A DNA stretch of 64,000 nt, taken from the NCBI GenBank assembly GCA_949317995.1, contig OX439042.1:20997174-21061173 (forward strand). Direction: 5' to 3'. The stretch's first letter is position 1. The number at the start of each line of letters is the position of its first letter. The stretch comes from Acholoe squamosa (taxonomy: Eukaryota; Annelida; Polychaeta; Phyllodocida; Polynoidae). The notes beneath the pieces were generated by a model. That model ran no database searches. It saw only the letters and a program-made list of their open reading frames with translations, and was not told the origin of the DNA. The position numbers and the translations under genes are program-made. Positions 4,344-42,576 of the stretch are shown here, in pieces.

Positions 4344-4387
4344 CAGTACAATGATAAGCCCAACCACTAATTCTCCACCATCTGGGC

Positions 4388-5100
4388 TGTGTGGGTTGTG
4401 TTTATATGTATATTAATGTGGTATAAGTTGTGTAGTTATTATCAGCTCACTCCGCTATTCTCACGTATTTGGGAAGACTAACTCTAGTGGTATGATGTTG
4501 GCTCAGCCCATCCTTTTAACCAACACCAAGACGCCGATACAAGTCACCATTTATTGTTCATTGGTTATTCACAGTTACAGTTGATGATGAGTCCACTCAT
4601 GGTTGTACAGCTTCAACGACATCAGTCTATTCATACAAGCAGTTCATGTTTAACAATCCGATGCTACTGGAGAGGTATAAGTGCCATAGAGATCCTGCTC
4701 AATCCGTTCTTACATTGGCTAAGTGTAATACTAAATATTAAACGGCTTCATCCTCGTCTACTCCAGGAGTATGTGTTGCCTCCTCGGCTGCTCCCACCAT
4801 ACTAACTCCTCCCTATCTCTTACCAACCCCTCACACCTCTCAGACGCCGGTGTTTGGCTCACCCGTATTCCCCCCTCCCTCTCTACAGAATCTACCTGAC
4901 CAGATCTCGCCGACTCCCCTCCGTCTACACATTCCACAGCCTACCATAAACTCTATACTACCATAAACCCTATACAGGACTCCCATAGCACTCTCCCATA
5001 TAGCATATAATAAATACACACATAATGCAGCATACAATAAATACCTACACAAGTGTACCCTGTTATACCCGTTCATTATAATTATTGGCTATTGATGACA
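4388..5100 (-). repeat. Candidate 5' LTR of the Ty3-like element
   Basis: The non-coding DNA between gag and 5.1 kb begins TGTGTGGG and ends ATGACA on the plus strand, giving TG...CA termini. On the minus strand it has a TATA-like stretch near 5075-5085 and an AATAAA near 4550. A TGG that could start a primer-binding site lies just inside it, towards gag. There is no second LTR in view to compare with, so the limits are a guess based on TG/CA ends only. Confidence 0.35.
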
Positions 5101-13938: not shown

Positions 13939-15118
13939 TCATACAAAACAGTTTGGATAGACTTTTCTAACACTATTTTTGAATTTATACATATTGTCTA
14001 TAACTGTAAATTCTGGTTTTAACTGATTCCATCTTGTAATGGCTCTATAGAGAGCACTACGTAGAACAATTGTTTTTAAACTGTGTGGAACAGTCAGTCT
14101 CTTTCCTTGGTGATATCGTGTAGCTATATTCCTTCTATCAATAAAAATCATATTTTGGGCAAGTGTAAAACCATAAGACAGTAGGTGTAAATCTCTCCTA
14201 ACATATAGCTCTGTACAATTACTTCTTTCTTGTATTTGTTTGGTCGTCATAACAGGATTTTCCTCTAACTTTACCTTATATACCATCCTTAATGCTCTGT
14301 TCTGTAACATTTGTAGATCTCTGTTTTCCCCTCTGTAGTCCCTATCCCAAATAAAATCACAGTAGTCAAATATGGGTAATATCATAGATTTGAAAACAGT
14401 CAAAGAGGCATCTTCGTCAAGTAGAGCTCTCACTCTCCCCATTTGAAAAATCCTTTGTCTAATAGTTTGCATAGTGTTTTCCCTATGTTTTACAAATTTC
14501 ATCTCTGTATCCATTCTTAAGCCTAGGTAAACAAATTCATCCACTTTCTCAAGATTCATATTGTTCATAGTAAACCTAGTATTATCGTTAATGTTAGTGT
14601 TAAAAGACATCCATTTGGTTTTTTGTACATTGATTTTAAGAGAGTTATTTATGCACCATAATACTATTTTCTGAATAACTTGGTTCATTTTATATGGGGA
14701 GTCAACAGATACCACTGCATCATCCGCATATAACGTAATATTACAATCAACTGCCTTGGCTAGGGAATTAATATATATGGAAAACAGAACAGGACCCAAA
14801 ACTGATCCTTGAGGAACCCCATACGTGATGGGTTTCAAGGATGAGACGCTATCATTTGCCAATGTACATTGCGAACGTTCTGCTAGATAATTTTTGAAAA
14901 ATTTACATGTATTATAACTGAGACCTAAAGCCTGTAATTTTCTAAATAATTTAGGGTGTGAAACCGTGTCAAAAGCCTTTTTGAAATCAATATATAGACA
15001 ATAAGTTAGTTTATTAATTAAATAATTGTTGATAATTGTTGCAAGATGCTCAGTGATAGCCGTCTGCGTAGAATGTCCTTTTCTATAACCATGTTGGGTC
15101 GGGCATAATAAATTTTGA
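13939..15118 (-). pseudogene. ORF2 3' part: reverse transcriptase catalytic core and C-terminal domain
   Basis: In the second frame RT continues without a break: QHGYRKGHSTQTA, motif A in YIDFKKAFDTVSH (near 14,970-15,000), motif B in YGVPQGSVLGPVLFSIYIN and the catalytic ITLYADDAVV (near 14,715-14,735). The region after the thumb (FVYLGLRMD, then IFDYCDFIWD) is typical of Jockey/CR1-type elements. The frame begins where the upstream one fails, showing a single-nucleotide-type frameshift. Apart from this, no stop interrupts the core, so decay is modest. Confidence 0.88.
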
Positions 15119-16393
15119 TTTTAGCCTTTTACAGACGATTCTCTCAAGTAGTTTACCTGTTATAGGCAGTAAGCTAATGGGTCTAGGATCTTCAACATTC
15201 ATAGAGTTAGCCTTTTTAGGAAGGGGTATAACGGTAGCGATTTTCCAATCTTCAGGGAAGATAGCTGAAGTTAGACATCTATTATATAATGATCTGAAGA
15301 TATCAGGAATAGCAAACATGGAGTCCTTAATAATAAAAGATTTACAATGTGCAATTGCAGATGGTTTCTTTATATCAATTGCCTTAACTAGCTTAATAAA
15401 GTCTATATAGGACAGCTCAAACAGAAGATCAGTATTTTCTACTATAGTACCATATGGGGGGATTACATTTTCATTTCTGTCTCCGGGCGGGAGTGCATTT
15501 GCTAATTTTTCTCCAATACCGGTAAAGAAACTATTTATATATTCAGCACAACCTTCAGGAGGTATTACTAAGTTTGTTGTATTGTTTCTAAGTTTAATTA
15601 GAGAAGTACAGGTTCTGTTAGGTAATACCTTCTTAATTGCTTCCCAGTATTTTGCAGGGTCATCTTTCCTATGCTCTAATAAATTTGCCATTTCTTTTTT
15701 CTTATTATTAAAAATTTCTATTTGGACCCTGTGTTTGTAAAAATTTGCTATTCTCCAGTCATCTTCTTTCATAGCGTTCTTCGCTGTCCTATATAAACTA
15801 TCTCTAACCTTCATTAAATCCAATATATCCTCCGTCAGCCACAATGGGGTGTGCTCTGGTATAATAACCGTTCTAATAGGACACATAACATCTAGATAGT
15901 CCTTTATCACCTTTTGAATATTTCTCCATATATCATTTGGGTTTTCTAGTGTCAATGTTTCATCCCAGTTATAGTTGGCTAGAGTATTTTTTAGGGATAA
16001 GAAATCATAATTTCTGTATGATCTAGCTTTGACCCTTTTCTTTTTGATCTTATGTCTTTCACATTTAATTACTAAGTATATGGGAGTGTGGTCGGAAATG
16101 TGATAATCTAGTGTACCATAAGCCGAAGCATTATGAACATTAGTATAAATATGGTCTAGTAGTGTCCCTGATTTTGGACGAGTAACTATATTAATTAGTT
16201 GAAAAAGATTATTACCAGTGCAAAAATCATCAACAGAGGAGTCATTTACATCCTTTTTGTTAAGAAGGTTCACATTAAAATCGCCTATGATAATTAGTTT
16301 CCTATTCCTAGTAACAGTATCAATTAATTCACTAAGTTTGGTATATATTGCCTTAAGATTATTACTATCTGGCGGTCTATAACATACAAACAC
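15083..16393 (-). pseudogene. ORF2 5' part: endonuclease C-terminal half, linker and RT N-terminus
   Basis: This is a 436-codon frame. It shows the exonuclease-endonuclease-phosphatase motifs IIIGDFNVN (GDFN at residues 37-40), LLDHIYTN (about 78-85) and the catalytic YHISDHTPIY (SDH at 100-102). A basic linker follows, then RT motifs 0-1 (EDWKIATVIPLPKK and PRPISLLPITGKLLERIV near residues 380-420). The frame is open upstream of the listed Met for about 20 more codons, then meets a stop inside the tandem repeat. It stops at 15,083 in mid-RT because of a frame change between about 15,085 and 15,118. The protein cannot be functional as it stands. Confidence 0.85.
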
Positions 16394-16420
16394 TTTGTAT
16401 TTTACAACGCTGATCTCAAC

Positions 16421-16482
16421 ATCGACACAGAGAATTTCAAATCGACACAGAGAATTTCACATTGACACAGAGAATTTCGACT
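16421..16482. repeat. Three tandem copies of a 21-22-bp unit
   Basis: GACACAGAGAATTTC occurs three times at about 21-22-bp spacing (near 16,424, 16,445 and 16,466), immediately beyond the truncated 5' end of the non-LTR element. It may mark the insertion junction. Confidence 0.7.
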
Positions 16483-17600: not shown

Positions 17601-17830
17601 ATTGTAGAGGTTGGTGAAAACATTCTGAAGAAACCGGGACTCGAACCTGGGGCCCTCCAATTTTGAAGCGGCTGCTCTACCTCTGAGCTTCTTCCCCTGG
17701 CCTGACATTCTCTACCTTCCAACTACCCTGGATTGGTATGGTATACATAGGGGGAGTGCCACAATCAAGTGAACAGTCCCTCTTAAGGCTCTGCGTACCT
17801 GACAGGGGAACGAACTCCTACACTATTACG
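17600..17830 (-). repeat. tRNA-derived SINE-like unit, copy C
   Basis: On the minus strand, 17,697 to 17,627 forms a 71-nt tRNA-like cloverleaf. It has an A-box region AGCTCAGAGGTAGAGC, a B-box GGTTCGAGTCC and acceptor GGGGAAG facing TTTCTTC with several G-T pairs. Upstream on the same strand it shares TAGTTGGAAGGTAGAGAATG and the GTGTAGG...CCCC head with the two copies at 41.8-42.6 kb. The tRNA-like part lies at the downstream end of the unit, which is unusual for a SINE head. Confidence 0.65.
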
Positions 17831-21689: not shown

Positions 21690-22039
21690 TGGGTACATTA
21701 ATGAAAACCTTCACCTATTCATCCTCATGCACCATGGGACCCATCTATCCTCACACACCCTCACACCTGTCCATCCTCACACAACCTCACATACGTCCAT
21801 CCTCACACACTGCAGGGCAGATCCAGGGGGGCCTAGGGGGCACGTACCCCCCAGACCTCCTGAAATTGGGCCAGGCTATGACTCTTAACGATAGGAAACA
21901 TGGCCCGAAAACCCGCTTGTGCCCTGCCCCAGACCAAATGTTCTTGGTTGTGCCCCGCCCCCCTAGACCACCCCTTCTGGATTTGCCCCTCCACACCCTC
22001 ACACCCATCGGATGATCCATCCTCACACACACACACACA

Positions 22040-22115
<76 letters not shown>

Positions 22116-22560
22116 CACACTCACACACTCACACACTCACACACTCACACACTCACACACGTCCATCCTATCCATCCTCACACACCCTTACACCCATCTA
22201 CCCTCACACCTATCCCTCCTCACACACCCTCACACCTATCCATCCTCACACACCCGCACACCTATCCATCCTCACACAACCTCACACCTATTCATCCTCA
22301 CACACCCTTATACCTATCCCACACACCCTCATGCCTATCCATCCTGTCACACCCATCTATCCTCACATACCCTCATACCCAACCATGTTCTTACCCCCCC
22401 CCCCCCCCCACAGCATTATTACACTTATAGCCCTCCACCCATACAGCTACCCACATGTCCCTCCACCCCACGCCCAATCTCAAACCTATCCACCCTCATA
22501 GACATCATTCTATCCTCCCACCCTTATAGCCGCCACAATATTCCTCCACTTGGACACCCA
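21690..22560. repeat. CA-rich degenerate satellite around CATCCTCACACACCCTCACAC units
   Basis: A degenerate unit of about 25 bp (variants of CCATCCTCACACACCCTCAC) is repeated on both sides of a pure core. The core, 22,020-22,160, consists of (CA)n, then (CACG)n, then CACACT repeats. Alternating purine-pyrimidine tracts of this kind are prone to Z-DNA. Long ORFs in both strands here are composition artefacts. Confidence 0.85.
21815..21988. mobile_element. 174-bp MITE inserted in the CA-rich satellite
   Basis: GGGCAGATCCAGGGGGG at the left end is matched by the complement of CCCCTTCTGGATTTGCCC at the right end, with further GC-rich inverted pairing inside. It interrupts the CA-rich array, with the array on both sides. 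No coding capacity; the target duplication cannot be read because the flanks are repetitive. Confidence 0.6.
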
Positions 22561-22707: not shown

Positions 22708-22713
22708 CCCAAC
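22708..22713 (+). repeat. Left 6-bp target-site duplication CCCAAC
   Basis: CCCAAC directly abuts the first base of the left terminal inverted repeat. The identical hexamer abuts the other end at 33,887-33,892. Confidence 0.75.
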
Positions 22714-23150
22714 AGTAGTATATAGGGGCAAACTCAGTGCATAGGAACAGCTACTGAAATCGATTTGACCTACTTACGAACCAGAAGTGATCTTTTGACC
22801 CCAACTTTGCACATGCGCACAGATAGGTTGAATTCAAAATGGCAGACAGCGTAACGTTTGATTTACATTGTCAACGACTTTGCGCATGCACAGAGATAGG
22901 CTAAATCCAAAATTGCTGACAGATGATAGGGAGCGTTTATTACTAACAACAGCGGGGTGGGTAGGTAGGTAGGGTAGGTAGGTTTATATAAACTGTGCGC
23001 GTGTTAGATACATGCGCATGTTAAATACATGCATGTGTGCGGCCTTCCCCCACAAAATACTTAAGGGGTGCCGCCAACCCCATAGCATACCCTACCCTAC
23101 CCTACCTTACCTTACCCTACTATACTTTTACCTAACCTATTCTATCCAGT
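22714..23150 (+). repeat. Left terminal inverted repeat
   Basis: It matches the reverse complement of 33,462-33,886 from the first base. It contains two copies of an ACTTTGC(A/G)CATGC-type segment followed by GATAGG, then CAGCGGGGTGGG, GTAGG repeats, a TTTATATAAA-like box, CCCCCACAAAATACTTAAGG and CCTACC repeats. The left arm has roughly 30-40 extra bases with ATACATGC motifs near 23,005-23,040. Confidence 0.75.
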
Positions 23151-24522
23151 AACCAACATGTTTTTTTGTCCCCCTACATTATAACATTTTCCCACCGTAA
23201 CATTACAAAAATAAATGACACTATCAACATGTTCCAATTAACCTTTTACATGCTGCACCCTACTATAGCATGCATACCCTTATCATGAAATTTCCCCCTA
23301 CCACCACCACAACCACCACCACCGTGCACCCATTGCTGCTCACTGGTTCGTGGATTAATAACAAACAATTTATGTAGGGTAGGGTATGGGGTGAGGGACA
23401 CCCCAGTAACGATGCATGCAATGACTGACACCGCCTATTAATAGGGACAACATGGAGAATAAAAAAAGGTTAATATAGACGTAATACACTCAAGCATGAA
23501 CAGTTAGATGTCAAATGCAGAAATCGCTTGACAAGATTTCCCTTATTTTAGCAAAAATGTTACAAAAAATTTACAAATTTACCTAAATGTTACAAAAATT
23601 CTACTTTTTACTCACAAGATTTCACCCTAAAACACAGTTTTAACCTATGTATTTTCTTTCACATCCATCCTTTGGTTGTTGTGTCCTATATGTGACATTG
23701 TGTTACACTTTTTGGATGATTATACCGTGTTCCTGGTAAAGTAGGTGTATAAATAATTATTAATCCTAATGTGAGTGAGCAGTGTAGAAGCCTACAGATT
23801 TAACTTTTGCTAAATTTTTGAAGGAATTTTCACCAATGTACAGTGAAGTAGTTTAAAAAGTAGATGTGCACAAATAAACTTCCAAAGTGTTGTATGTTGT
23901 ATCCTTGATGTTAAATCCTGGATTAAGTACAAGGTAGTAGTAGATACAGTATATGGACGGTCAGAGAGCTTGTGGTGTAGAGTGGAGAGTCAGTAATGAG
24001 AAGAGCTCGGTGTGTAGAGTGGAGAGTCAGTGTGAGAAGAGCTTCCAGGAAATGACACGCTTTGATTAAATGCAGGCTCGGTCATGTGGTAAACAAAACC
24101 CACGTGACTGGTCATGCCACAAAGAATGTGTATAGTGGAGCATTACTAGGATCACCAAGAGATTTGATTGCATTCAGTGTGTGGAAGTGTGGGTAGTTGA
24201 GACGACCACAGGAAGGCACCACTAGGTAGTCTGATATCTTCAACCTGCTGAGGAGCTTTGAATTAAGTGGGAATTAGTAGAGAGTGGGAGAAAAGAATTA
24301 AAGGTTATATCTAAACGACCTTTGGTGAAATGGACACCAGAACATGTTAACCTTGAATGAAAAAATCTCTATAAAATCCTGGTGCCAACGATCTAAGTGA
24401 CAGCACAGTCGATAAGTAACCAGCAGATTGAGACATTGAGATAAAAATATTATATGTTAATGCTGATTCTAATAGTAAAGAGGTAATAACTATCCTGAAA
24501 GGGGTTAGCTGTATATGTGAGC
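23151..24522. other. Non-coding left interior of the TIR element
   Basis: No ORF of note. 23,170-23,217 (CCTACATTATAACATTTTCC...) resembles, in direct orientation, 33,419-33,465 just inside the other TIR. A tandem duplication of GTGTAGAGTGGAGAGTCAGT lies at about 23,975-24,040. A TGGTGCCAACGATC string near 24,380 resembles a retroviral primer-binding region, but there is no LTR to support this. Confidence 0.45.
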
Positions 24523-24804
24523 ATGGAAGTCAGACACAAGTATAGGAGGACCAAAGCCTCCAATGGCACCAGATGGCTATGGGGGAAATTCAGAACCATC
24601 ACATGCATCATATGGTTTCTGCTGTGGCCGTGTCCTAGTAGGACAGCAGACATGGGTTTTGATATTAAGGATATGATTGCTTTAGGGGTAGTAATGAAGC
24701 CAGGGAGAATTATGAGTATAGCAGATTCGGATCATGTGTCCCAAGAGTTTGTATTAGAACTAAACCAAAAATGTTGTCCCCCCACAAAGTGCCAGCATGT
24801 ATAA
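24523..24804 (+). CDS. N-terminal fragment of a secreted or type I membrane glycoprotein-like protein (envelope/F-like)
   Basis: From the ATG at 24,523 the frame runs 93 codons. A basic N-terminus is followed by a hydrophobic, Trp/Leu-rich segment at about residues 27-42, ending in a plausible signal-peptidase site (PSRTA). A polar ectodomain-like stretch ending in a CCPPTKC cluster follows. Downstream DNA up to the Penelope-like insertion, and again beyond it, continues to resemble an ectodomain in shifting frames, and a membrane anchor appears at 32.5 kb. The overall plan (signal peptide, ectodomain, single C-terminal anchor, basic tail) fits the errantivirus Env/baculovirus F family of entry proteins. 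The sequence match is only impressionistic, and any type I membrane protein could look like this. As it stands the gene is broken. Confidence 0.4.
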   Translation: MEVRHKYRRTKASNGTRWLWGKFRTITCIIWFLLWPCPSRTADMGFDIKDMIALGVVMKPGRIMSIADSDHVSQEFVLELNQKCCPPTKCQHV

Positions 24805-25476
24805 TGAATGCATATGAATAATTAACGCCGTAACTAAGCAATTTAATACTTTAGTTGTATACCCCAGCCGGGATATGCGAGATGATAAAACTTAATGAAG
24901 AATGATTGGACCTGGCTAACCAGGAAATGATAAGGGTACGGCAGACAATCTTGCATGACACACTAGAGTTGATACCGGTCAAAAACAAGACTATTAGATC
25001 AGAGAGAGCGGGAATTCCAGTAAGTAATGTGTTCTCAGAATTCAGATGTAGAGGAAGTTGGAGAAAAAAATTAACATCATGAAGGGGACACAGAGGAAAA
25101 TTTATAAAATGCTGAGAGAGCTCGCCACAAAGGGGGATGAAAATTTCAGCAAAGTGCAGATTGAGTGGGATAAAGCCCTACAACAACAGTATTGTTCACA
25201 GCACAGGCGGAAATATTAAAATTTCAGGGGTTTCTAAAAGACTGTATCAATCAGAACACTGACGCCTTATTCAACATGTCTATCTTTCAGTCACATATCA
25301 ATGGCGTGTTAAGAACCAAACTGGATATGCCCTCCACTTTTTACTTTTACTTTTTCCTTTTTCACTTTTTTTACTTTTTTTTTTCATGAACAAGATACAA
25401 AGAACAGCTAAACTGGTCAGGGAAATAAGAGAAGCTATTAAACACAAAATTTCACCAAGACTTATCTCACCAAAAG
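24805..25476 (+). pseudogene. Degraded ectodomain portion of the envelope-like gene, left of the Penelope-like insertion
   Basis: The plus strand has coding-like stretches in more than one frame, with stops and frameshifts between them. The last stretch ends in a basic, helix-prone segment (TAKLVREIREAIKHKIS) directly at the insertion point. A low-complexity T-rich tract at 25,335-25,385 (ACTTTTT repeats) interrupts it. No intact reading frame exists. That it belongs to the same gene is inferred from strand, position and the anchor-bearing remainder further right. Confidence 0.4.
25461..25476 (+). repeat. Left target-site duplication of the Penelope-like element
   Basis: CTTATCTCACCAAAAG here and CTTATCCACCAAAAG at 30,698-30,712 differ by one base and flank the element exactly. 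PLE target duplications are known to vary in length at about this size. Confidence 0.75.
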
Positions 25477-25491
25477 ATTTTTTTTTTTTTT

Positions 25492-25536
25492 TTTGTGGGT
25501 TATGACCTGTCCGCATCGTGCGGACAGGTCATAACC
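25492..25536. repeat. 21-bp-arm perfect palindrome at the PLE 5' end
   Basis: GTGGGTTATGACCTGTCCGCA, three bases (TCG), then its exact complement. The right arm is the beginning of the first terminal repeat and the left arm is its inverted extension after a T tract. Inverted 5' tails of this kind are known from PLE insertions. Confidence 0.75.
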
Positions 25537-25728
25537 CACCTAGCCCTTGTTGAAAAGATCTATTATTTCACCAGTGAGCTGACCGTTAAAGTGCACCATT
25601 ACATCTTTCAACCATTGTACGCATCGTGCGGACAGGTCATAACCCACCTAGCCCTTGTCGAAAAGATCTATTATTTCACCAGTGAGCTGACCGTTAAAGT
25701 GCACCATTACATCTTTCAACCATTGTAC
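25513..25728 (+). repeat. Two tandem 108-bp terminal repeats (pLTR) of the PLE
   Basis: Units 25,513-25,620 and 25,621-25,728 both begin GCATCGTGCGGACAGGTCAT and end ACCATTGTAC, differing at about one position. The first 47 bp recur at 30,651-30,697, at the 3' end. PLEs are known to insert as partial tandems, which gives this pattern. Confidence 0.85.
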
Positions 25729-25766
25729 AACCTTTGTACATCACTCACCACTAACCCTTGGCGAAG

Positions 25767-27026
25767 ATGGCGAGTAAATCCCCCGAAAAACCGAAAGAAA
25801 ACCCGGACGACGCAGCGTCGACTTCAAACGGCGCGCCAGCGAACGGCAGCATGGCGAACCAACCAACGCCCGCAGTAAGTAGTTTTTTGTTCTCTCGATC
25901 TCAAAATCGAGAAAATTTAGTGTCATCAAAGTCTATCAATGATGGCAATACACCTTTTATGTCTCCAGTTAATAGTCAGACAGATCTATTTATCAGTCAG
26001 TCCATTAATCTGGAGGGCGTCTCACAGAGCGCTACGCACATCCGCTCAGACATGAGGCCGCCCAGGAGTAACGCTAGTCAGCCAATTGTTATAAGTTCGG
26101 GCCATGAATCCCAACCTAACAAACGTAAAAAGACAGATATATCATCTCCAGATATCTCTACTGCTGAATTACTGGGAGTGGATAATGCTGACAACCTGAA
26201 AGAAATTCACAATTTCCTTCAGGAAATCAACACAAATCCAAACCTAGCGACTAATGTTTACAACCTCATAAAAGTTGCAATGAATTCCAATACCGGTAAC
26301 AATGACACTTTGTCATCTAATATCGTTACAGAAACCTTGAAAGTGGCAACTGATGGAATAAAACGCTCTGTTTCTTTCCATCAGGATACCAATCAAGAAA
26401 AACCCAGCGCTCCCAAACCGGTCTCTACGAGAATCGAACTCTCCAAGGCTGAAGAAGAGACATGGATGCTTGCTAAATCCCATAGTATCCGAGGCCACAA
26501 AGCACACCAACGCGCCATGTGGCTGGAGGAACTCGAGGGTGACCAACTCATCACAGGCTGGGCTTTAGGAAATGAAGATTTACCGATGTATGTATCTTCC
26601 AGTGAGAGAGCCATGGACGCTCTAGCTCGCTCACGCCGAGCAAGTTGTTTTACTCACCAGAAAGCCGTAGCAGAGGCTCTTCATGCCGATGCTGAGCAAG
26701 AGATTGATGAAGGCAATAAGCACTCCAGAAACCTCTCCAATATGGTGAGCTCATCTCAGAAAATGGAAAAAATCAAGGAGAAAACCGACCGCTTCCTTAT
26801 GACAGAAAGCAGGAAGTTGGCTACCAAGATGGCTTCCACCCGCCTGAGACTGAACAACACAAAACAACCCCTGTCAGTCTTTAAAGACATCACTACTCAT
26901 TATAATAGTTGTAGGAAGGTTGTGGGCTCTAAGGACGAAGACAGTGATGAGACTACTGAAACTCTCACCGCTGCCGACTTCCCACCCATCACTGCCCCAG
27001 AGCAACGTGAAAAACAAGAACAATAA
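25767..27026 (+). CDS. PLE ORF1 protein, function unknown
   Basis: It starts at the ATG 25,767 (an in-frame TTG lies three codons upstream) and runs 419 codons. The N-terminus is Ser/Pro/Asn-rich and disordered-looking. Residues about 220-340 are helix-prone and charged (EEETWMLAKSHSIRGHKAHQ and ASCFTHQKAVAEALHADA), suggesting a structured core. I do not recognise a domain. Its stop at 27,024-27,026 falls in an A-rich run (GAAAAACAAGAACAATAAC). The +1 frame continues with a Lys/Gln-rich tail to 27,360, so this copy has probably lost a base there. Position and strand make it the ORF1 of the PLE, possibly an RNA-binding partner of the RT. Confidence 0.6.
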   Translation: MASKSPEKPKENPDDAASTSNGAPANGSMANQPTPAVSSFLFSRSQNRENLVSSKSINDGNTPFMSPVNSQTDLFISQSINLEGVSQSATHIRSDMRPPRSNASQPIVISSGHESQPNKRKKTDISSPDISTAELLGVDNADNLKEIHNFLQEINTNPNLATNVYNLIKVAMNSNTGNNDTLSSNIVTETLKVATDGIKRSVSFHQDTNQEKPSAPKPVSTRIELSKAEEETWMLAKSHSIRGHKAHQRAMWLEELEGDQLITGWALGNEDLPMYVSSSERAMDALARSRRASCFTHQKAVAEALHADAEQEIDEGNKHSRNLSNMVSSSQKMEKIKEKTDRFLMTESRKLATKMASTRLRLNNTKQPLSVFKDITTHYNSCRKVVGSKDEDSDETTETLTAADFPPITAPEQREKQEQ

Positions 27027-27360
27027 CAAAAAGTACCCTTCTGATCAAGGTAAAAAGAGGGCCCGCTCAGCGTCCACCAACACTGAAGTTAGGAAAAAGA
27101 AGACGGCCCCACCCACCAATGAGTCTAAACCCAAAGGTGGAAATAAGCAAAAGCAACAACCCCAGAAGAAACAGCCTAAACAGGCTTTTCCCAAACCCTC
27201 AACCTCAACAGAGACCTCGTCCCCGTCGAGCAACGAGGGTTGGCAACCTTCAAAAGCGTCCAAAAAGGCGTTGAAGAAGAATCTGAACACCAAACTCACC
27301 CCAGAACAAACCATGACCTTGATGAAGTCCCTAGAGTACATCAAGTCACTGAATCTCTGA
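26990..27360 (+). CDS. Basic C-terminal continuation of PLE ORF1 in the +1 frame
   Basis: The +1 frame past the end of ORF1 encodes about 110 residues very rich in Lys, Gln and Pro (KKRARSASTNTEVRKKKTAP, GGNKQKQQPQKKQPKQ), ending NLNTKLTPEQTMTLMKSLEY and a stop at 27,360. The composition fits a nucleic-acid-binding tail. It most likely was one protein with ORF1 and is now separated by a frameshift at about 26,995-27,020. A programmed +1 shift cannot be excluded. Confidence 0.5.
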
Positions 27361-27413
27361 AGACTTTTGCCCTTGTTAAACCGTCACATCTTGACAGTAA
27401 TTCTACACAAGTT

Positions 27414-30020
27414 ATGTCCTTTGACTTTGACACTGTTACCCTTGTTCAAACTAACCATACAAATGACACTTTGGCCCTGGAGCCTACAAATGTTACAGTT
27501 ATCACAAATTTGAACAATTCTAGCAATAATCAAAACATCTACGAAGACCTGAACTTCGATAAATGTAAGAATGATTCAGTATATTTGGAACATACTTTCA
27601 AAAATAAAATAATCATTCCTTTTGTTGACCCGCCCTCGTCATTAGTCAATCTTTCAAATTATGACCTATCTCCTACTGAACTTTCTGTTCTAGAGAGAGG
27701 ACTAAATTTCTGTCCCACCCCTGGAGAACCGCACTCGGGCGATCTCCGGAGGGAAATTGATAGATTTCACAGGAATCTCAGAATCAAATCCTTTTTTGAT
27801 CCAGATAGAGCTAGACCTGAGAAAAAAGCACAAGCCAACAGTACCACTAATGACCCAGTATCTGATACCCATGTTATTAGTAATGACCAGTCTATCAATG
27901 ACCCTCAACCCCCCAGTGGTTCATATGAACCCTGTCTGGAGAGAACCTTAACTGATACGGAAAAGATTCTCTCCAGTTCAAAGGTTATAAAGAATGACCG
28001 AAGTTGGAAGCCTCCTTTAGGCCCTACAACTCTGGAAACCTTTATTAACACCAACGAGGCTGACCTCAATAAAGTCATATCTAGGGCTCCGAGAGTCCGA
28101 AATTTGACTCTAGATGAAAAGAACTCTCTACGAGAACTATCTAGAAATCATTCCATTGTAGTAAAAAAAGCGGACAAAGGCGGCTCCATTGTCATCATGA
28201 ACCGCAATGATTACGTCATGGAAGGACAGCGACAACTGAAGGACGGTAAGTTCTATAAAGAAACTACTGTTGATTTAACCAAAGACCATTGTCACAAAAT
28301 TAATTTCAGTGTCAACTTACTAAGAAGAAAGGGAGAAATCAGCGAGCAACTTGAACGGAAACTCCTCACTAGTAAACCGAGAACACCCTGTTTGTATCTT
28401 CTACCGAAGATACACAAAGGTAAGTACCCACCGCCTGGAAGACCAATTGTCTCTGCAAATGGTTCTCCAATGGAAAAAATATCAGCCTTTGTTGATGCCT
28501 ATTTGAAACCGATGGTTCCAAAAATAAGATCCTACCTCAGAGATACCAGACACTTGCTTCTTATATTTAAGAAACTGGGACAAATACCAAGTGGATCTCG
28601 GATTGGCACTTTGGATGTAACCTCGTTATATACCAATATTCCAAACCGTGAAGGCCACATGGCAGTAGGTAGATTTCTTATCAAACACAGGAGGGTGAAT
28701 CCAAATGAACCCTCCAATGAAAGCCTATGCCATCTATTATGGCAAGTGCTAACCATGAATAATTTCAAATTTAATGGTAAACATTACCTACAAATCGCTG
28801 GCACAGCCATGGGCACTAGAGTTGCCCCAACCTATGCCAACATATTCATGGGGGACTTTGAAGAAAAACACGTCTATACGTATCGACTACAACCTTTTTT
28901 GTGGCTTCGATTCATAGATGATGTATTCTTCATCTGGACCCATGGAGAAAACGAGTATGAGAAATTTCTACACCATCTGAACACGGTCCATCAGACAATA
29001 AAGTTCACTGGTGAAATTTCTGATAAGTCTATAAACTTCCTTGATACCACAGTGACTCTCACTGCGGGAAACATAGAAACAGACTTATATGTGAAACCAA
29101 CAGACTCCAACAACTACCTCAGGTATGATTCCTCACACCCCAGACACTGTGTAAGGGGCATACCGTACGGACAGTTTCTACGGATACGGAGAATCTGCTC
29201 TAAAGACGAGAACTTCATACGCCATAGTATAATGAAGGGCCGTCACTTCATACGACGCGGGTACGACCCCTGCTTCATACTATCTGCCTTCCTAAGAGCT
29301 TGGGCTACAACAAGGGAATCTCTCCTTGTAGACAAGCCCAAACCTCAGAAAGACCAAACACCCCATATATTGGTGACTACTTACTCACCAGGCAGTGACT
29401 GCCTAAGTAAGATTGTACAAACCAACTGGGATCTCCTAGTGAAATCGTACCACACAAGGAACATTCACAAAAAGGGCTTCATGACTGTTCATAAGAGACC
29501 CAAAAACATTGGAGACCATGTAGTAAGAGCTAGACTCCCCAAACTCCCTGATGAGAACAGGATTCCTAGGGTAAATACCTGCAAAACTAAAGGTTGTGGG
29601 TACTGTACCAGAATGAACTACAGTGGCAAGATCACGTGCCCCACTACTGGTCGCACGTACTCAGCCAAGAACAATGTTTGCTGTAAAAGTTCCAATTTGA
29701 TCTACAGCCTTTCCTGCAAGCGGTGTGGGAAAATGTATGTGGGTCAAACAAAGGGACCGTTGATGGATCGTATCCGCACACATTACAGAAACATACGGAA
29801 TAATGTTGTAACAAGCATTGTTGGATCTCATTTCAACACTAATTTCCATAAACAGCTAGATGATGTGGAGTTAACCATAGTTGACTTCATACATGCTCAC
29901 CCTGATAGTGACAAAGCTGGCTACCTACGGAACCTAGTTGAATTCAATTGGATTCAAAGGCTCCATTCCAATGCACCTCAAGGGTTGAATATAGCAGATG
30001 CCCCCTTTGGAGCTGGCTAA
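27414..30020 (+). CDS. PLE reverse transcriptase with C-terminal GIY-YIG endonuclease
   Basis: This is an 868-codon ORF from the ATG at 27,414; the frame is open to 27,240 without an ATG. The N-terminal 200 residues are unassigned. The RT shows KKADKGGSIVIMNRNDY, LYLLPKIHKG with GRPIVS, motif A TLDVTSLYTNIP (Asp at about residue 401), motif B AGTAMGTRVAPTYANIFMG and the catalytic FIDD (Asp 502 and 503). FLDTTVTL and the PLE-typical GIPYGQFLRIRRICS follow. A Cys cluster (CKTKGCGYC from about residue 723) precedes the GIY-YIG nuclease: IYSLSCKRCGKMYVGQT (about 763-779), then DRIRTHYRNI and GSHFN. GIY-YIG makes the target nick and RT copies the RNA. No stop interrupts it, so the enzyme could be intact. 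The RT order and the GIY-YIG fusion are diagnostic of endonuclease-positive Penelope-like elements. Confidence 0.93.
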   Translation: MSFDFDTVTLVQTNHTNDTLALEPTNVTVITNLNNSSNNQNIYEDLNFDKCKNDSVYLEHTFKNKIIIPFVDPPSSLVNLSNYDLSPTELSVLERGLNFCPTPGEPHSGDLRREIDRFHRNLRIKSFFDPDRARPEKKAQANSTTNDPVSDTHVISNDQSINDPQPPSGSYEPCLERTLTDTEKILSSSKVIKNDRSWKPPLGPTTLETFINTNEADLNKVISRAPRVRNLTLDEKNSLRELSRNHSIVVKKADKGGSIVIMNRNDYVMEGQRQLKDGKFYKETTVDLTKDHCHKINFSVNLLRRKGEISEQLERKLLTSKPRTPCLYLLPKIHKGKYPPPGRPIVSANGSPMEKISAFVDAYLKPMVPKIRSYLRDTRHLLLIFKKLGQIPSGSRIGTLDVTSLYTNIPNREGHMAVGRFLIKHRRVNPNEPSNESLCHLLWQVLTMNNFKFNGKHYLQIAGTAMGTRVAPTYANIFMGDFEEKHVYTYRLQPFLWLRFIDDVFFIWTHGENEYEKFLHHLNTVHQTIKFTGEISDKSINFLDTTVTLTAGNIETDLYVKPTDSNNYLRYDSSHPRHCVRGIPYGQFLRIRRICSKDENFIRHSIMKGRHFIRRGYDPCFILSAFLRAWATTRESLLVDKPKPQKDQTPHILVTTYSPGSDCLSKIVQTNWDLLVKSYHTRNIHKKGFMTVHKRPKNIGDHVVRARLPKLPDENRIPRVNTCKTKGCGYCTRMNYSGKITCPTTGRTYSAKNNVCCKSSNLIYSLSCKRCGKMYVGQTKGPLMDRIRTHYRNIRNNVVTSIVGSHFNTNFHKQLDDVELTIVDFIHAHPDSDKAGYLRNLVEFNWIQRLHSNAPQGLNIADAPFGAG

Positions 30021-30650
30021 ATAGAGGTTAAGAGGAATTCTGGGAGAGTCCACTGTTTGGACAAACCCCACTTGAGCCCAAAATAGCCTCGCATCCTTGG
30101 GATGCCCGACCTAGCCACGTCAAAAAAAAAATTTTAAATAAATCATCGGGCACCCCGAGTTGGCTAAAAGGTTTATAAATATACTCGTTCTTTCACTTTT
30201 GAAAGTCAGTATAAGAACACCTAAGTGGAGAGTCCTGTTTAACTTTTCCATGCCTGTTTGATATTTCTACCAAATATTATAGTAATTGACAGTAAAACTC
30301 TAATTTTATTGTCATTGGACCCGCAACCATAGTTACGGTGACCGAGTGAGGTTGCCAAGAAACTTTTTTCTCAACAACACCACAATAACACCAAATTCCT
30401 GTGAATTTGGGACCACTGGCAACATTTGCCACTATTTTGCACAATCAGATGCCTGATGAGTCCCCACTGGACGAAACTACTCTTTTTAGTGGAAATCCTG
30501 ATATTTTTACTAAGTTGCCATAACATCTATTAGATGTTGGCAACTGTTGTCAAGCTCACCTAGGTGATGATGACATCAGTGGCTGTTGCATGGCAATGGT
30601 GTTCTGAATGATGTCACAGGGTTTAACCCCAACCGTCATTTGGAGTGGTA
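30021..30650 (+). other. PLE 3' untranslated region
   Basis: Non-coding DNA between the RT stop and the terminal-repeat fragment. It contains GGATGCCCGA/TCGGGCACCC pairing around an A-rich tract near 30,100-30,160, an AATAAA in that tract, and the hammerhead-like motif listed separately. Confidence 0.6.
30444..30502 (+). ncRNA. Hammerhead-ribozyme-like motif in the PLE 3' UTR
   Basis: The conserved core is present in order: CTGATGA (30,453-30,459), stem II GTCC/GGAC with loop CCACT (30,460-30,472) and GAAA (30,473-30,476). A 5-bp stem III (CTACT/AGTGG, 30,477-30,492) follows, and a distal stem I (ATCAG at 30,444-30,448 with CTGAT at 30,498-30,502). PLEs are known to encode hammerhead ribozymes, which supports the call. 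The region after stem III reads AAATC rather than placing an NUH triplet directly at the junction, and stem I next to the core pairs poorly. This copy may therefore be inactive or may fold differently from my model. Confidence 0.55.
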
Positions 30651-30697
30651 GCATCGTGCGGACAGGTCATAACCCACCTAGCCCTTGTCGAAAAGAT
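30651..30697 (+). repeat. 3' fragment of the PLE terminal repeat
   Basis: This 47-bp stretch matches the first 47 bases of the 108-bp tandem unit at 25,513 and 25,621 and stops at the target duplication. The truncated tandem copy marks the 3' end of the PLE. Confidence 0.8.
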
Positions 30698-30712
30698 CTT
30701 ATCCACCAAAAG
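30698..30712 (+). repeat. Right target-site duplication of the Penelope-like element
   Basis: CTTATCCACCAAAAG; see the left copy at 25,461-25,476, which has one extra T. Confidence 0.75.
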
Positions 30713-31283
30713 CATTCAAAAGGTGGTGGAACAAGCAGCCCTAAGAATTACCACAAACACTCAGTGAACTTTATAGAGCCAGATTACTATTACGAGAATG
30801 TCGTAGTTACATGCTACCAGGAATAGAGGAAAAACATATTTAAAAGTGAATATCCCAGTGATGAATGGTGAACACATTTTCAGTGTATATCAGGTGGTGA
30901 CCCAGTACCAATTAGAATTAAGGGCAAACAGGTGGATGGCACCATGTTAGCGGGATTACCAAACGAAATTGCTATATCCAGGTCAGGGACATATTACATT
31001 GCCACACCAGTGGTCACATGGTCAGGCTACATTGGAAAAACAGTAGCAATTTTGTCCAAATGTGCCCTACATGTGAAAAGTGAGCAAAAAATCGTGTAAA
31101 GCTGCACTCATCAGGGATGATCTGTCAGCTATCCAGACACTATGTGACATACAATAAGGGTACGTCCCATTTTTCCGTCAATGGCAATGGGAGATAACAA
31201 GGTGTTAATCACAGGACCAGAAGTAGAGGGTCAATTCCAGTATAACCCTGTGGGTCGCAACCCCCACAAATCATCACCATCCA
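30713..31283 (+). pseudogene. Degraded ectodomain portion of the envelope-like gene, right of the PLE
   Basis: Coding-like stretches continue on the plus strand in at least two frames, with several stops. Short pieces carry features expected of an Env/F-type ectodomain: a short hydrophobic strand ending in Ile-Pro-Val followed by Tyr/Val-rich residues (near 30,850-30,900), then a segment with spaced Ser-Gly-Thr-Tyr-Tyr and a Cys (near 30,985-31,060). The similarity is to the family's general pattern and needs a profile search. The copy is clearly non-functional. It is cut at 31,284 by another insertion. Confidence 0.35.
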
Positions 31284-32108
31284 CTGGGTTAGCGATAAGC
31301 TACCTTTTCAATTAGCCAATTTGGCGAATTTTGATTGATTTTGATTAGCCAAATTCAGTGTCAATTAGCCAAATATATTCACTTTAAAATATACATTAGG
31401 TGGAGAAGATTAAGGGACAATGACTGCCTAACAAAAGCAGATCCAATATGTACGGAAATCTGGAATTTATTTTGTATTTCCAATGAAATGTATGTTGAAT
31501 GGGGGGTTTTGTTTAATAGAAAAAAAATCCCTTGTGACTCTGAAGCTAATCCTTACAAAATGCAAAATCTTTTTCTAAAACTATAGGGGCTCTAATTATA
31601 TGATGGAAGCATTATAGATATATCTAGACTTGCTCAAGTCTCTTAATTTTAATATAAAGGAATTGAAATTCTAGAAATTGAAATAAATTAAAGTTTAGAT
31701 GGAAAAAAAGTAAGAAGACCTCTAGTGAATCAGTAAGCGACTGCGCTGGGGGAGAAGGGGGAGGAGTGAGTGTGGTACTGAGTAGCAGTAGACTAGTAGC
31801 GTCTGTAGTAGATCCTAGAGACTAACACTAGTCTAATCATCTAAACTAACCCAAGTCTTTTGATTTTTATGTAAGGAACATGGGGACCAGCGCTAGTCTA
31901 GGATACACCATGTTACATTCCTCCTTGAATTTCCTTTCCAATGGTGTATTATATGGCTATATCCTTATAGGTGAATTAAGGCCTACAGCCTGTGCTTACA
32001 ACCCTCCATTGGGATTCGCCAATTTGGCGATTTTCCATGGAGTTTTATTAGCCAAAATTGCTTTTGATTCGCCATTAAGGATTTGGCGAATGGCTAGCGC
32101 AAACCCTG
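31284..32108. mobile_element. 825-bp inverted-repeat insertion (hAT-like ends) in the envelope-like gene
   Basis: The left end CTGGGTTAGCGATAAGC resembles the complement of the right end GGCTAGCGCAAACCCTG. Inside, several AATTTGGCGAAT/ATTCGCCAA and TTAGCCAAA/TTTGGCTAA segments are mirrored (31,310-31,380 against 32,010-32,100). No transposase ORF is seen. The flanking octamers (ACCATCCA and ATCCATCA) are similar but not identical, so the duplication size is undecided. The C(A/T)GGG start is hAT-like. Confidence 0.5.
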
Positions 32109-32625
32109 ATCCATCACTGCAGTGTAAAAGAAGTGGGGTGTGATTGTGCCTTTCTCACGGCGGGTTCCTGGATGACGTATAGTCTAAAAGGGTATGCTAA
32201 AAAGGTATTAAAAACCAAGGTCCATTTCTCAACAAATAAACTGTTGAAAATGGGAAAGTTAGATCAAGAATGGGTGGCAGCAAAGATTAATGCCAGGGAA
32301 GTGGCGACACTCAAACAAGTTTTAGCTTCCAGCTAACGTTAGAGACGTATTAGAGCAGAAGGCACTGGACACCAACAACACGGTGAAGGTGAAAATGGCA
32401 TTATAGTGTGCAGGGATGGAAGATGGTCTACTAACTTTAGAGGATAGGTTAGGACAGATTCAGCTGCCAGGACATAAACCACCCCAGTGCCCGTATGAGG
32501 GTAGCTCTAAGGACTCTACAATAACCGAGTTGGTCATTATAGTGGTAGTATTAATACTAGTAGCCATATACCTGATTAGGAAGGTTAGACAAATGAAGAG
32601 GAAAAAACTACTGGATGGAATATAA
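32109..32625 (+). pseudogene. C-terminal part of the envelope-like gene with transmembrane anchor and basic tail
   Basis: Two pieces are coding-like: 32,133-32,336 (about 67 codons) and 32,416-32,625. The latter (ATG at 32,416) encodes about 45 polar residues containing one Cys. A 20-residue Ile/Val/Leu-rich membrane span follows at about 32,527-32,580, then a strongly basic tail (RKVRQMKRKK) and TAA at 32,623-32,625. A single C-terminal span with a short basic tail is the expected end of a type I viral-type glycoprotein. The same frame reopens right after the stop. Confidence 0.45.
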
Positions 32626-32646
32626 TTGGACTTATCATCAGACTCT

Positions 32647-32925
32647 ATGAACGAAGTAATCCATTTGGACACCTGCAGCATCCCTGTCGACCATGTCTTT
32701 CAAAGGTCTATAGGGGAGCCACTGGTCAAGGAAGTGGTGGTATCAATAACATGCCGGGGGCACATGGCCCTAGTAATATGGGGGCGAACCCTATACTCGA
32801 CAAAATGTGGTTCGGGAGAACTGGCTATACCAGTGAGCCTACCAGACACTATCAAGGTATCCAGAACTACAGCTTGGGAGTTGGATAGGATAAATGGAGT
32901 GCTAATAGCCAGACTTCTTAAATAA
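32647..32925 (+). CDS. Small ORF directly behind the membrane anchor, unknown
   Basis: 93 codons from the ATG at 32,647. The frame is the same as that of the anchor-bearing ORF, and the two are separated by a single TAA (32,623-32,625) with no other stop, so the frame covers 32,416-32,925 apart from that codon. The product has two Cys and a beta-strand-like pattern (KEVVVSITCRGHMALVIWG, then KCGSGELAIPVSLPDTI). I do not recognise it. It could be an extended cytoplasmic tail of the glycoprotein before the stop arose, or an independent small gene. Compact spacing to the next ORF (5 bases) looks virus- or transposon-like. Confidence 0.4.
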   Translation: MNEVIHLDTCSIPVDHVFQRSIGEPLVKEVVVSITCRGHMALVIWGRTLYSTKCGSGELAIPVSLPDTIKVSRTTAWELDRINGVLIARLLK

Positions 32926-32930
32926 AGTCC

Positions 32931-33479
32931 ATGGATTTACTTAGAAAGCAAGACCTGGATTCTGAGCAGGTTTTGACTACACTCCTGCCTGCTAATGTAT
33001 CAGCCCTGGACATAACTTTAGGACAGCCAATGCTCCTCAAGTGTACACTGGGACAACTGGATAACAACCACTTCACTGAAGATACAAGTGGGATAACAAC
33101 CAGCCAGGGACCCACTGTGCCTGAAAATCTTTTTTTTTTTACCAAAGCTCAAGCAACCAGACAAATCAGGCATTACTAGGTGAGCAGCAGGACAATAGTG
33201 CCAAGGACATGTCCACCTAAGGACACATCACTTGGATTTACTGGCAGCAAAACAGTAAGTGTGCACAGGGTTACAGACAACCCTCTGGGGTTACATGAAC
33301 AAGTCACCAGTGGACAAAACAGCTTGAACAATGGAACCCATATAAACTCTCAAGCACAAACTAAAGTTTACACATCATCATATGCAAAATGGATTAGAAA
33401 AAAAGTGTTAACTTTTAGCACCTACATCATAACATTCTCCCACCACAATGTAAAAAATAAACAACCAAAGGTAAACTAG
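32931..33479 (+). CDS. Small ORF with one in-frame TAG, unknown
   Basis: It starts with ATG at 32,931, five bases after the previous stop. 82 codons lead to TAG at 33,177-33,179; the same frame then continues 99 more codons to 33,479, ending inside the start of the right TIR region. A run of T (33,129-33,138) encodes consecutive Phe. The product is polar, Thr/Gln-rich and without a recognisable domain. The second half runs into DNA that resembles the left interior, so it may be open by chance. If real, the gene carries one nonsense mutation. Confidence 0.35.
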
Positions 33480-33886
33480 GCTAAAGTGGGTAGGTAGGTA
33501 GGTACGTAGATAGGTAGGTAAAATAGGGTAGGGTAAGGTAGGCTATGGGGTGGGGGGCACCCCTTAAGTATTTTGTGGGGGAAGGTGCATAACACATGCA
33601 CACCCTATATAAACCTACCTACCCTACCTACCTACCTACCCACCCCGCTGTTGTTAATAATAAATGCTCCCTACCATTTGTCTGCCATTTAAGATTTAGC
33701 CTATCTCTGCGCATGTGCAAAGTCGATGACAACGTAAGTCAAATGTTTTGCTGTCCGCCATTTTGAATTTAACTTATCTCTGTGCATGTGCAAAGTCAAG
33801 GTCTAAAGGTCACTTCCGGTTCGTAAGTAGATCAAATCGATTTCAGTAGCTGTTCCAATGTGCTGAGTTCGCCCATATATACTACT
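33462..33886 (-). repeat. Right terminal inverted repeat
   Basis: Reverse complement of 22,714-23,150, ending ...TATATACTACT at the target duplication. It holds GTAGG/CCTACC tandem repeats, CACCCCTTAAGTATTTTGTG, a TATATAAACC box, GCGCATGTGCAAAGTC and the CAAATCGATTTCAGTAGCTG end segment. Confidence 0.75.
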
Positions 33887-33892
33887 CCCAAC
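33887..33892 (+). repeat. Right 6-bp target-site duplication CCCAAC
   Basis: Identical to 22,708-22,713, directly abutting the terminal CT of the element. Confidence 0.75.
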
Positions 33893-40704: not shown

Positions 40705-41014
40705 TAATATATCATCCCATGGTGTCAGGCTGTACGTGAAATGTCAACTTTGAATATCAGCCCCAATCAATCAATTAAGACAATTTATACTTCACCTGGC
40801 TCTGCACCCCATTGTTCCTTCTTTAGGTTTATTTCCACATTCTACAGTTGGGGGCCAGCAGGAGCTTTTATGAATTAGGTCAGTTCTGGCAGGAGGTTTT
40901 GTGAATTGGGTCAGGTTTGGGAGGAGGTTTTGTGAAATAGGCCAAGTGTAGCAGGAGTCTTATGAATTAGGTCATTTTTAGGTTTAGGTCACAGCAGATG
41001 GAGTGGAAAATTTT

Positions 41015-41095
41015 GTCCCATATGGGATTCGTACCCATGCACCAGACAGTGCTGGGATCCAGAGTCCCATGTGCTAACCATTACACCATGAGTCC
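41015..41095 (-). tRNA. tRNA-Gln-like sequence with anticodon CTG, probably a pseudogene or SINE head
   Basis: The minus strand has TGGTGTAATGGTTAGCAC (D arm and A box as in tRNA-Gln), an anticodon stem TGGGA/TCCCA with loop CTCTGGA (anticodon CTG) and a T arm ATGGG TACGAAT CCCAT. Two features argue against a working gene: the acceptor strands do not pair well (GGACTCA against ATGGGAC), and an extra 4-bp hairpin (GCAC/GTGC) occupies the variable region. No SINE tail is obvious. Confidence 0.5.
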
Positions 41096-41819: not shown

Positions 41820-42060
41820 TGTAGGGGCAGTAATTCCCTTACCTGGTGGAGATACTGAGTGGTCCTGCCGCACAAGAGAGCTTGGTACCAGGTAATCACT
41901 GCCCCCTAGTGTGTGTATCATACCAATCCAGGTGTAGTTGGAAGGTAGAGAATGTCAGGCCAGGGGAAGTAGCTCAATGGAAGAGCTTCCGCTTCAAAGT
42001 TAGAGGGTCCCGGGTTCGAGTCCCGGTTTCTCTTTGACATTTTCCACTGACCACTACATT
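41820..42060 (+). repeat. tRNA-derived SINE-like unit, copy A
   Basis: The unit runs GTGTAGGGGCAGTAATTCCC to GACATTTTCCACTGACCAC. A 71-nt tRNA-like part (41,963-42,033) has GCTCAATGGAAGAGC, a B box GGTTCGAGTCC and acceptor GGGGAAG/TTTCTCT (with G-T pairs). Upstream, GGGGCAGTAATT...ACCTGG and CCAGGTAATCACTGCCCC form an inverted repeat. Confidence 0.7.
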
Positions 42061-42323: not shown

Positions 42324-42576
42324 GTGTAGGGGCAGTAATTCCCCGTACCTGGTGGAGATACCGAGTGGTCCCGCCGCACAAGAGGGATCTTTAGAGAGCT
42401 CGGTACCAGGTAATCACTGCCCCCTAGTGTGTGTATCATACCGATCCAGGTGTAGTTGGAAGGTAGAGAATGTCAGGCCAGGGGAAGTAGCTCAGGGGTA
42501 GAGCTTCCGCTTCGAAGTTGGAGGGTCCCGGGTTCGAGTCCTGGTTGCTCGATGACATTTTCCACTGACCACTACA
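42324..42576 (+). repeat. tRNA-derived SINE-like unit, copy B
   Basis: About 93-95% identical to copy A over its whole length, 504 bp downstream, with an extra GGATCTTTAGA in the head. The tRNA-like part (42,481-42,551) has a better D arm (GCTCAGGGGTAGAGC) but a weaker acceptor stem. Confidence 0.7.

What the first reader, a model, noticed from the sequence alone, without database searches (positions are those of the whole stretch)
22714..33886. Maverick/Polinton-type termini around an element carrying a broken envelope-like fusion glycoprotein gene
Seen: inverted repeats of about 425 bp, AG...CT ends and a perfect 6-bp duplication CCCAAC exactly at the homology break. The cargo includes a signal-peptide ORF, degraded ectodomain-like stretches and a single membrane anchor with a basic tail. 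Known: Maverick/Polinton elements have AG/CT ends, long TIRs and 6-bp duplications, and some have captured fusogen genes in nematodes. Inferred: this may be a Polinton-related, virus-like element of another animal lineage that took up an Env/F-type glycoprotein, later gutted by nested insertions.
Basis: partly seen in the sequence, partly recalled or inferred. Interest (0 to 1): 0.88.

Follow-up and report, generated by a model that had tools for sequence, protein, structure and literature searches.

The report
Dead Maverick-ended element with virus-type glycoprotein
A broken copy of a repeated, virus-like DNA transposon in an animal genome has Maverick-type ends and carries the wreck of a cell-fusion-type surface protein gene, relatives of which are still intact elsewhere in the same genome.

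Summary
The anatomy is real. Inverted repeats (22714-23122 / 33507-33886) end AGTAGT...ACTACT inside a perfect 6-bp duplication, CCCAAC: the published Maverick end motif, repeat length and duplication size. The ends are a family: the terminal 16-mer occurs 323 times in the 1.48-Gb genome (reversed control 0), and 7 of 7 copies compared have 6-bp duplications (5 perfect, 2 with 5 of 6). A glycoprotein gene lies on the + strand in three pieces, split by a Penelope-like retroelement and an 825-bp insert. It sits at the same place in two other both-ended copies, so it belongs to the element. Four 920-921-aa open relatives elsewhere in the genome have a basic cleavage site, a heptad region, two membrane segments and dN/dS near 0.1; six database homologues exist (37-42% identity). 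No Maverick polymerase or packaging ATPase was found in the copies read; integrase, capsid and other transposases were not properly searched. So: an apparently non-autonomous element with Maverick-type ends carrying a class-I-fusogen-like gene, degraded. F/Env type rests on architecture; no curated family matched above cut-off and the fold is inconclusive. The carrier of the intact copies is unresolved.

The parts
22708..22713 (.). left target-site duplication CCCAAC
   Evidence: sequence
22714..23122 (+). left terminal inverted repeat, starts (AGT)2
   Evidence: genome-wide family
24119..24204 (+). remnant of the 3' end of 'gene A', which lies upstream of the glycoprotein gene in other copies
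   Evidence: tblastn E 0.005 (weak); stronger in L009 (E 6e-29) and L012 (E 2e-8)
24199..25477 (+). glycoprotein gene, 5' piece (signal peptide, former cleavage region, heptad region), broken by stops and frameshifts
   Evidence: open-run excess, 0 of 1000 shuffles
25479..30692 (+). nested Penelope-like element (tandem 108-bp repeats at 25508/25616, partial copy at 30648-30699; target duplication ~22 bp, diverged)
   Evidence: (RT E 3e-4, GIY-YIG E 9e-4, both below cut-off); GIY-YIG above cut-off on a C-terminal piece; that RT plus GIY-YIG means Penelope-like is recalled
30693..31283 (+). glycoprotein gene, middle piece
31284..32108 (.). second nested insert, 825 bp, flanked by ATCCA on both sides
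   Evidence: absent from other copies; sequence
32109..32924 (+). glycoprotein gene, 3' piece with the remaining membrane segment and conserved cytoplasmic part; first C-terminal membrane segment lost (~150 bp at ~32465)
32925..33101 (+). truncated 'tail gene' (SAM-like by eye; no Pfam match)
   Evidence: tblastn E 2e-28
33507..33886 (-). right terminal inverted repeat, ends (ACT)2
33887..33892 (.). right target-site duplication CCCAAC
   Evidence: sequence

Best explanation
The interval is a dead copy of a multi-copy, Maverick/Polinton-ended DNA element that carried, as its own gene, a virus-type membrane-fusion glycoprotein with class-I-like architecture (signal peptide, basic cleavage site, hydrophobic stretch after it, heptad region, two C-terminal membrane segments, conserved ~200-aa cytoplasmic part). 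Shown: ends, 6-bp duplications, copy number, same cargo at the same place in independent copies, purifying selection on intact relatives. Inferred: the copies were inserted by a retroviral-type integrase supplied in trans, and the protein acted by cleavage and helical refolding to fuse membranes. The window copy then lost internal stretches, gained stops and frameshifts, and was split by two insertions.
For: Ends, repeats and duplications match the Maverick end motif, repeat length and 6-bp duplication (PMC8097293 section 7). The glycoprotein is at the same relative place in L009 and L012, each with two repeat ends and its own duplication, and two more glycoprotein copies have one exact end nearby (C4:50783888, C5:2394229). 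Further glycoprotein copies share L012's downstream sequence (L036 89% over 730 columns), and gene A lies upstream both of older copies and of the 920-type copies. In the 7 proteins compared, R-x-[KR]-R is present in 6 of 7, two C-terminal membrane segments in 6 of 7, and the heptad-period signal is below p 0.05 (uncorrected) in 6 of 7; P0006 (611 aa) is the exception each time. dN/dS about 0.1 among four full frames.
Against: No PolB in any repeat-bearing copy read, no packaging ATPase there, integrase not properly searched. No glycoprotein matched a curated family above cut-off. The model is weak (pLDDT 42.6) with no significant fold match. Of the places I could compare, 0 of 2 920-type copies (both broken, on C4) and 0 of 81 copies of the 947-type family lay within 15 kb of a listed exact repeat end, so what carries the intact genes is unknown. 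The open-run test is not specific: the second insert itself also scored p=0.025.
Confidence: 0.66

Rival explanations
1. The glycoprotein gene is the env of an LTR retroelement (errantivirus-like) that was caught in a Maverick before that family amplified; the element itself has no viral use for it.
For: A related 947-961-aa family has dozens of copies with the same score (150 matches from 150 scored of 1455 candidates), the kind of burst an active retroelement gives; 0 of 81 placed copies lie near a listed repeat end. A weak integrase match (rve_3, E 0.019) lies beside one damaged copy (L041). The only Pfam lead of interest is Baculo_F, which by recall includes errantiviral Env.
Against: Beside the one intact copy whose upstream side was read (L078+L039) lie a + strand gene and an opposite-strand 340-aa open frame, a layout unlike pol-env; neither matches Pfam. 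Remnants of both are also in L009 and L012 inside the Maverick ends. Gene A lies 2-7 kb upstream of 16 of the 920-type copies and 1-4 kb upstream of 10 older copies.
Confidence: 0.24
2. The ends and cargo belong to a different integrating DNA virus or transposon lineage that only converged on Maverick-like ends.
For: No Maverick gene was found in the copies read; 0 of 20 PolB places compared lie within 15 kb of a listed repeat end.
Against: Three features (doubled-trinucleotide end motif, ~400-bp repeats, 6-bp duplication) match together, and the genome holds many long DNA_pol_B_2 frames that could be donors.
Confidence: 0.12
3. The membrane protein is an ordinary host gene fragment caught between repeats.
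For: No curated viral family matches above cut-off.
Against: Many dispersed copies, full open frames, strong purifying selection, furin-like site and heptad region, and a neighbour gene conserved with it.
Confidence: 0.03

Closest known systems
Maverick/Polinton elements (vertebrate Mavericks, PMC8097293: section 7 read, other passages by search)
   Same: 5'-(AGT)2//(ACT)2-3' ends, inverted repeats near the 402-bp mean, 6-bp duplications
   Different: no PolB or ATPase found in the copies read, integrase and capsid not tested; carries a glycoprotein gene
Nematode Mavericks with a putative fusogen (Widen et al.; seen only as a passage in the meeting report PMC10680173)
   Same: a Maverick-type element carrying a viral-fusogen-like gene
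   Different: the host here is unnamed; that the nematode protein resembles herpesvirus gB is recalled; the protein here has class-I-like features; no other Maverick gene found
Baculovirus F / errantiviral Env (Pfam PF12259)
   Same: signal peptide, basic cleavage site followed by a hydrophobic stretch, heptad region, C-terminal anchor (comparison from recall)
   Different: below the Pfam cut-off (13.8 against 24.1 bits in 1 of 3); two membrane segments and a ~200-aa conserved cytoplasmic part
Pneumovirus F (class I fusion)
   Same: 7 of the first 11 Foldseek rows are RSV or HMPV F; long helices after the cleavage site
   Different: best E 0.097, TM-scores at most 0.21 for these rows, low-confidence model; alphavirus and coronavirus spike rows also appear: a lead, not a test passed

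Membership tests
Maverick/Polinton | conserved end motif (AGT)2//(ACT)2 | tested here: met
   window and five of the six other pairs at both ends; the right end of L015/L016 is altered; 323 exact terminal 16-mers; motif from PMC8097293
[quoted passage not shown]
   7 of 7 both-ended copies; 5 perfect duplications, 2 with 5 of 6
Maverick/Polinton | protein-primed PolB inside the element | tested here: not met
   30 PolB frames from L048-L077, tblastn E<=0.01, no hit in the window or 12 repeat loci; longer copies not readable
Maverick/Polinton | retroviral-type integrase inside the element | tested here: inconclusive
   no rve match in the frames scanned inside the repeats; genome search PF00665 did not complete (93, 98, 123)
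Maverick/Polinton | A32-type packaging ATPase | tested here: not met
   1 genome match, C7:23954737, not at any copy read (150 of 495 candidates scored)
Maverick/Polinton | double jelly-roll major capsid protein | not tested
   no model searched
Class I fusion glycoprotein (F/Env type) | basic cleavage site, then hydrophobic stretch and heptad region | tested here: met
   site 6 of 7, heptad signal p<0.05 uncorrected in 6 of 7; the defining list is recalled
Class I fusion glycoprotein (F/Env type) | profile match to Baculo_F | tested here: not met
   E 0.022, 13.8 bits against 24.1 in L035; none in L039, L042 or P0001-P0006
Class I fusion glycoprotein (F/Env type) | trimeric class I fold | tested here: inconclusive
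   pLDDT 42.6; pneumovirus F leads without significance; profile to PDB only weak coiled coils
LTR retroelement env | env downstream of pol and followed by an LTR | tested here: inconclusive
   2.3 kb upstream of one intact copy shows no Pfam pol match but an opposite-strand frame; further flanks not readable

The most novel reading that the evidence does not exclude
The genome hosts an enveloped, Maverick-related virus lineage: an integrating DNA element that encodes an F-like fusogen plus a divergent second membrane protein (gene B, Ser/Thr-rich with a hydrophobic end), kept functional by selection while it spread (four copies still have the full 920-921-aa frame, among about 16 that keep gene A beside the glycoprotein), and whose older, repeat-bounded satellites include the window copy.
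Probability: 0.26. Interest if true: 0.88.

Novelty: new variant of a known kind. Interest (0 to 1): 0.64.

Why it matters
Mavericks encode capsid proteins but their particles have not been observed (PMC8097293, start of abstract in the listing), and how they move between animals is open. A fusogen-type gene amplified inside Maverick ends, with relatives under strong purifying selection, makes the idea of enveloped or cell-fusing Mavericks testable, perhaps outside nematodes, by reading a few more flanks.

Tried and rejected
Pfam on ten stop-to-stop glycoprotein pieces: nothing above cut-off. IMG/VR scans with the repeat 25-mer, four pieces and the family alignment: none. PDB by sequence: nothing significant. 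Database homologues of the 99-aa 3' frame and of gene A: none. Rfam: only tRNAs at gathering score; no hammerhead reported. A splicing explanation for the window's missing stretches was dropped: the junctions against L012 are not GT-AG and look like deletions. Rejected: that the glycoprotein is a further nested insertion private to this copy; L009 and L012 have it at the same place. Host identity was not established (63 contigs, 1.48 Gb).
Full report
Observation. The inverted repeats are at 22714-23122 and 33507-33886 (86% over 297 bp and 90% over 74 bp). The outer ends read AGTAGTATATA and TATATACTACT, and CCCAAC lies immediately outside both (22708-22713, 33887-33892). Vertebrate Mavericks most often have 5'-(AGT)2//(ACT)2-3' ends, inverted repeats of 402 +/- 276 bp and 6-bp duplications (PMC8097293, section 7 read in full, other passages by search). 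All three fit.

The ends are a family. The window lies at G000:C8:20997174-21061173 in an unnamed 1.48-Gb genome. The left repeat gave 50 matches (40 of 1677 candidates scored). The exact terminal 16-mer occurs 158 + and 165 - times against 0 and 0 for the reversed control; among the 100 places listed, 17 adjacent inverted pairs are under 25 kb apart, three of them 17-20 kb. I read six other inverted pairs picked. With the window, 7 of 7 have 6-bp duplications: window, L010, L011, L012 and L013/L014 perfect, L009 and L015/L016 with 5 of 6. The right end of L015/L016 itself has lost the doubled ACT.

The cargo. The copies read fall into two groups that share ends and the right-hand region: with the glycoprotein (window, L009, L012) and without it (L010, L011, L013/L014, L015/L016). 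In the window the glycoprotein gene occupies 24199-25477, 30693-31283 and 32109-32924 on the + strand. Other copies run straight across both gaps, so the gaps are insertions: a Penelope-like element (RT E 3e-4 and GIY-YIG E 9e-4 for the 926-aa frame, below cut-offs; GIY-YIG above cut-off on a piece; tandem 108-bp repeats) and an 825-bp insert. Against L012 the window copy also lacks 743 bp before the gene, about 3.1 kb after it, and about 150 bp that hold the first C-terminal membrane segment. A no-relatives test gives only uneven support for former coding: the sum of open runs of 50 or more codons in 24491-25480 exceeds all 1000 shuffles on the + strand, 32622-33490 gives p=0.013, 32140-32622 p=0.025 and 30700-31300 p=0.15, but the second insert, used as a control stretch, also gives p=0.025 (12 region-strand tests).

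The gene is the element's own. It is at the same place in L009 and L012, which have different target duplications. Of six older-type glycoprotein copies on C1 to the start of C5 that I could place, three lie within 15 kb of a listed exact repeat end (C2:12478023 = L009, C4:50783888, C5:2394229); a fourth (C3:47654319 = L012) lies between two ends that differ from the 16-mer; two (C2:59808026, C3:4534724) had no listed end nearby, though C2:59808026 has the tail gene next to it. Glycoprotein copies L021, L025, L027, L036, L038 and L046 share sequence that follows the gene in L012 (for example L036 89% over 730 columns).

Relatives. With one piece of the gene as query, 150 of 150 scored candidates matched (1455 candidates in all): older copies close to the window's, a 920-type family at about 61-66% identity, a large family with frames mostly of 947-961 aa at about 51%, and a few others. 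Of the 920-type copies, four have full 920-921-aa frames (L031, L035, L039, L042); the rest are shorter or interrupted. The L039 frame aligns colinearly with the window pieces (E 2e-52, 2e-50, 1e-40, 8e-32). Six database proteins are homologous (37-42% identity over 61-93% of the query, contigs up to 8.9 kb, no names). Among these seven proteins R-x-[KR]-R at residues 136-162 is present in 6 of 7, two C-terminal membrane segments in 6 of 7 (three of these also have a weaker hydrophobic window near 481-484), and the heptad-period signal is below p 0.05, uncorrected, in 6 of 7; the exception each time is P0006, a 611-aa protein. Between L039 and the three other full frames dN/dS is 0.011/0.099, 0.010/0.110 and 0.010/0.088; against the 706-aa frame of L044 it is 0.043/0.67; against the older-type L019 frame dS is saturated (dN 0.257). 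The gene was kept functional while it spread.

What the protein is. No curated family matches above cut-off. Baculo_F gives E 0.022 in one of three full frames and nothing in the six database proteins. The model has mean pLDDT 42.6, with long helices after the cleavage site, a strand-rich middle and helices before the membrane segments. Foldseek finds nothing significant (best E 0.097), but 7 of the first 11 rows are RSV or HMPV F; alphavirus and coronavirus spikes appear lower. The profile's best PDB match is a trimeric coiled coil at E 0.18. I read this as class-I-like by architecture, not as proven homology.

Neighbours. Upstream of one intact copy (L078 + L039) are gene A (+, 200 aa) and gene B (-, 340-aa open frame, Ser/Thr-rich, hydrophobic end); neither has a Pfam match, and gene A has no database homologue. 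Gene A gave 39 matches with all 61 candidates scored: 16 full or nearly full copies, each 2-7 kb from a 920-type glycoprotein copy, and 10 weaker matches 1-4 kb upstream of older glycoprotein copies, L009's and L012's among them; the others were not paired. Remnants of both genes are in L009 and L012, and a weak one of gene A (E 0.005) in the window. An opposite-strand gene next to the glycoprotein speaks against a plain gag-pol-env retroelement for that copy, but only 2.3 kb upstream could be read.

What is missing. DNA_pol_B_2 frames are abundant in this genome (206 matches from 71 scored of 871 candidates; 0 of 14 control genomes), but 30 such frames find nothing in the window or 12 repeat-bearing loci, and 0 of 20 PolB places compared lie within 15 kb of a listed end; one (C3:18890526) lies 49 kb from a 947-type copy. 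Pox_A32 gives one match elsewhere. The integrase and Baculo_F genome searches did not complete, capsid was not searched, and the copies without the glycoprotein were not scanned by Pfam. Of the places compared, 0 of 2 920-type copies and 0 of 81 947-type copies lie near a listed exact end (the listing stops at the start of C5). So the element is non-autonomous as far as it was read, its partner is not identified, and the carrier of the intact glycoprotein genes is open.

Novelty. A putative fusogen in nematode Mavericks is known (passage in PMC10680173). My searches for Polinton/Maverick with fusogen, envelope, glycoprotein, errantivirus, adintovirus, mollusc and env gene showed no report of a Maverick-ended element with an F/Env-type gene; this covers open-licence papers only and was judged from listings and starts of abstracts, plus passages of PMC10175614, PMC5803895, PMC11071308, PMC10680173 and PMC8097293.

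Verdict. Real, multi-copy and well delimited; a variant of a known kind whose full biology hinges on a few unread flanks.

Noticed in passing
30453-30481: Hammerhead-ribozyme-like core (CTGATGAG...GAAAC) inside the nested Penelope-like element, seen by eye; the Rfam scan to E 1 did not report it.
   Followed up: partly
G000, many places: A 947-961-aa glycoprotein family with dozens of equally scoring open copies; its carrier element is unknown and it looks recently active.
   Followed up: partly
G000 (loci L048-L077): Many long DNA_pol_B_2 frames (up to 1582 aa, most of 1426-1497 aa), i.e. an abundant and apparently young Maverick-like PolB population.
   Followed up: partly
G000, e.g. C8:27876495/27877504, C16:50367749/50370485: Copies of the tail gene often occur in close inverted pairs, as if fold-back derivatives of the element's end had formed.
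   Followed up: no
L011 and L017 (C17:18418927-18433876): The right end of one copy is repeated with 98% identity about 7 kb further on, with the same bases just outside.
   Followed up: no
1452-4412 (-): 986-aa open frame, gag-like by eye, no Pfam match above cut-off.
   Followed up: no
13939-16456 (-): LINE-type endonuclease and reverse transcriptase frames.
   Followed up: no
17626-17697 (-), 41014-41094 (-), 41962-42034 (+), 42480-42552 (+): tRNA-like genes.
   Followed up: no
21990-22390: Long CA/CGCA-type simple repeat array just left of the element.
   Followed up: no
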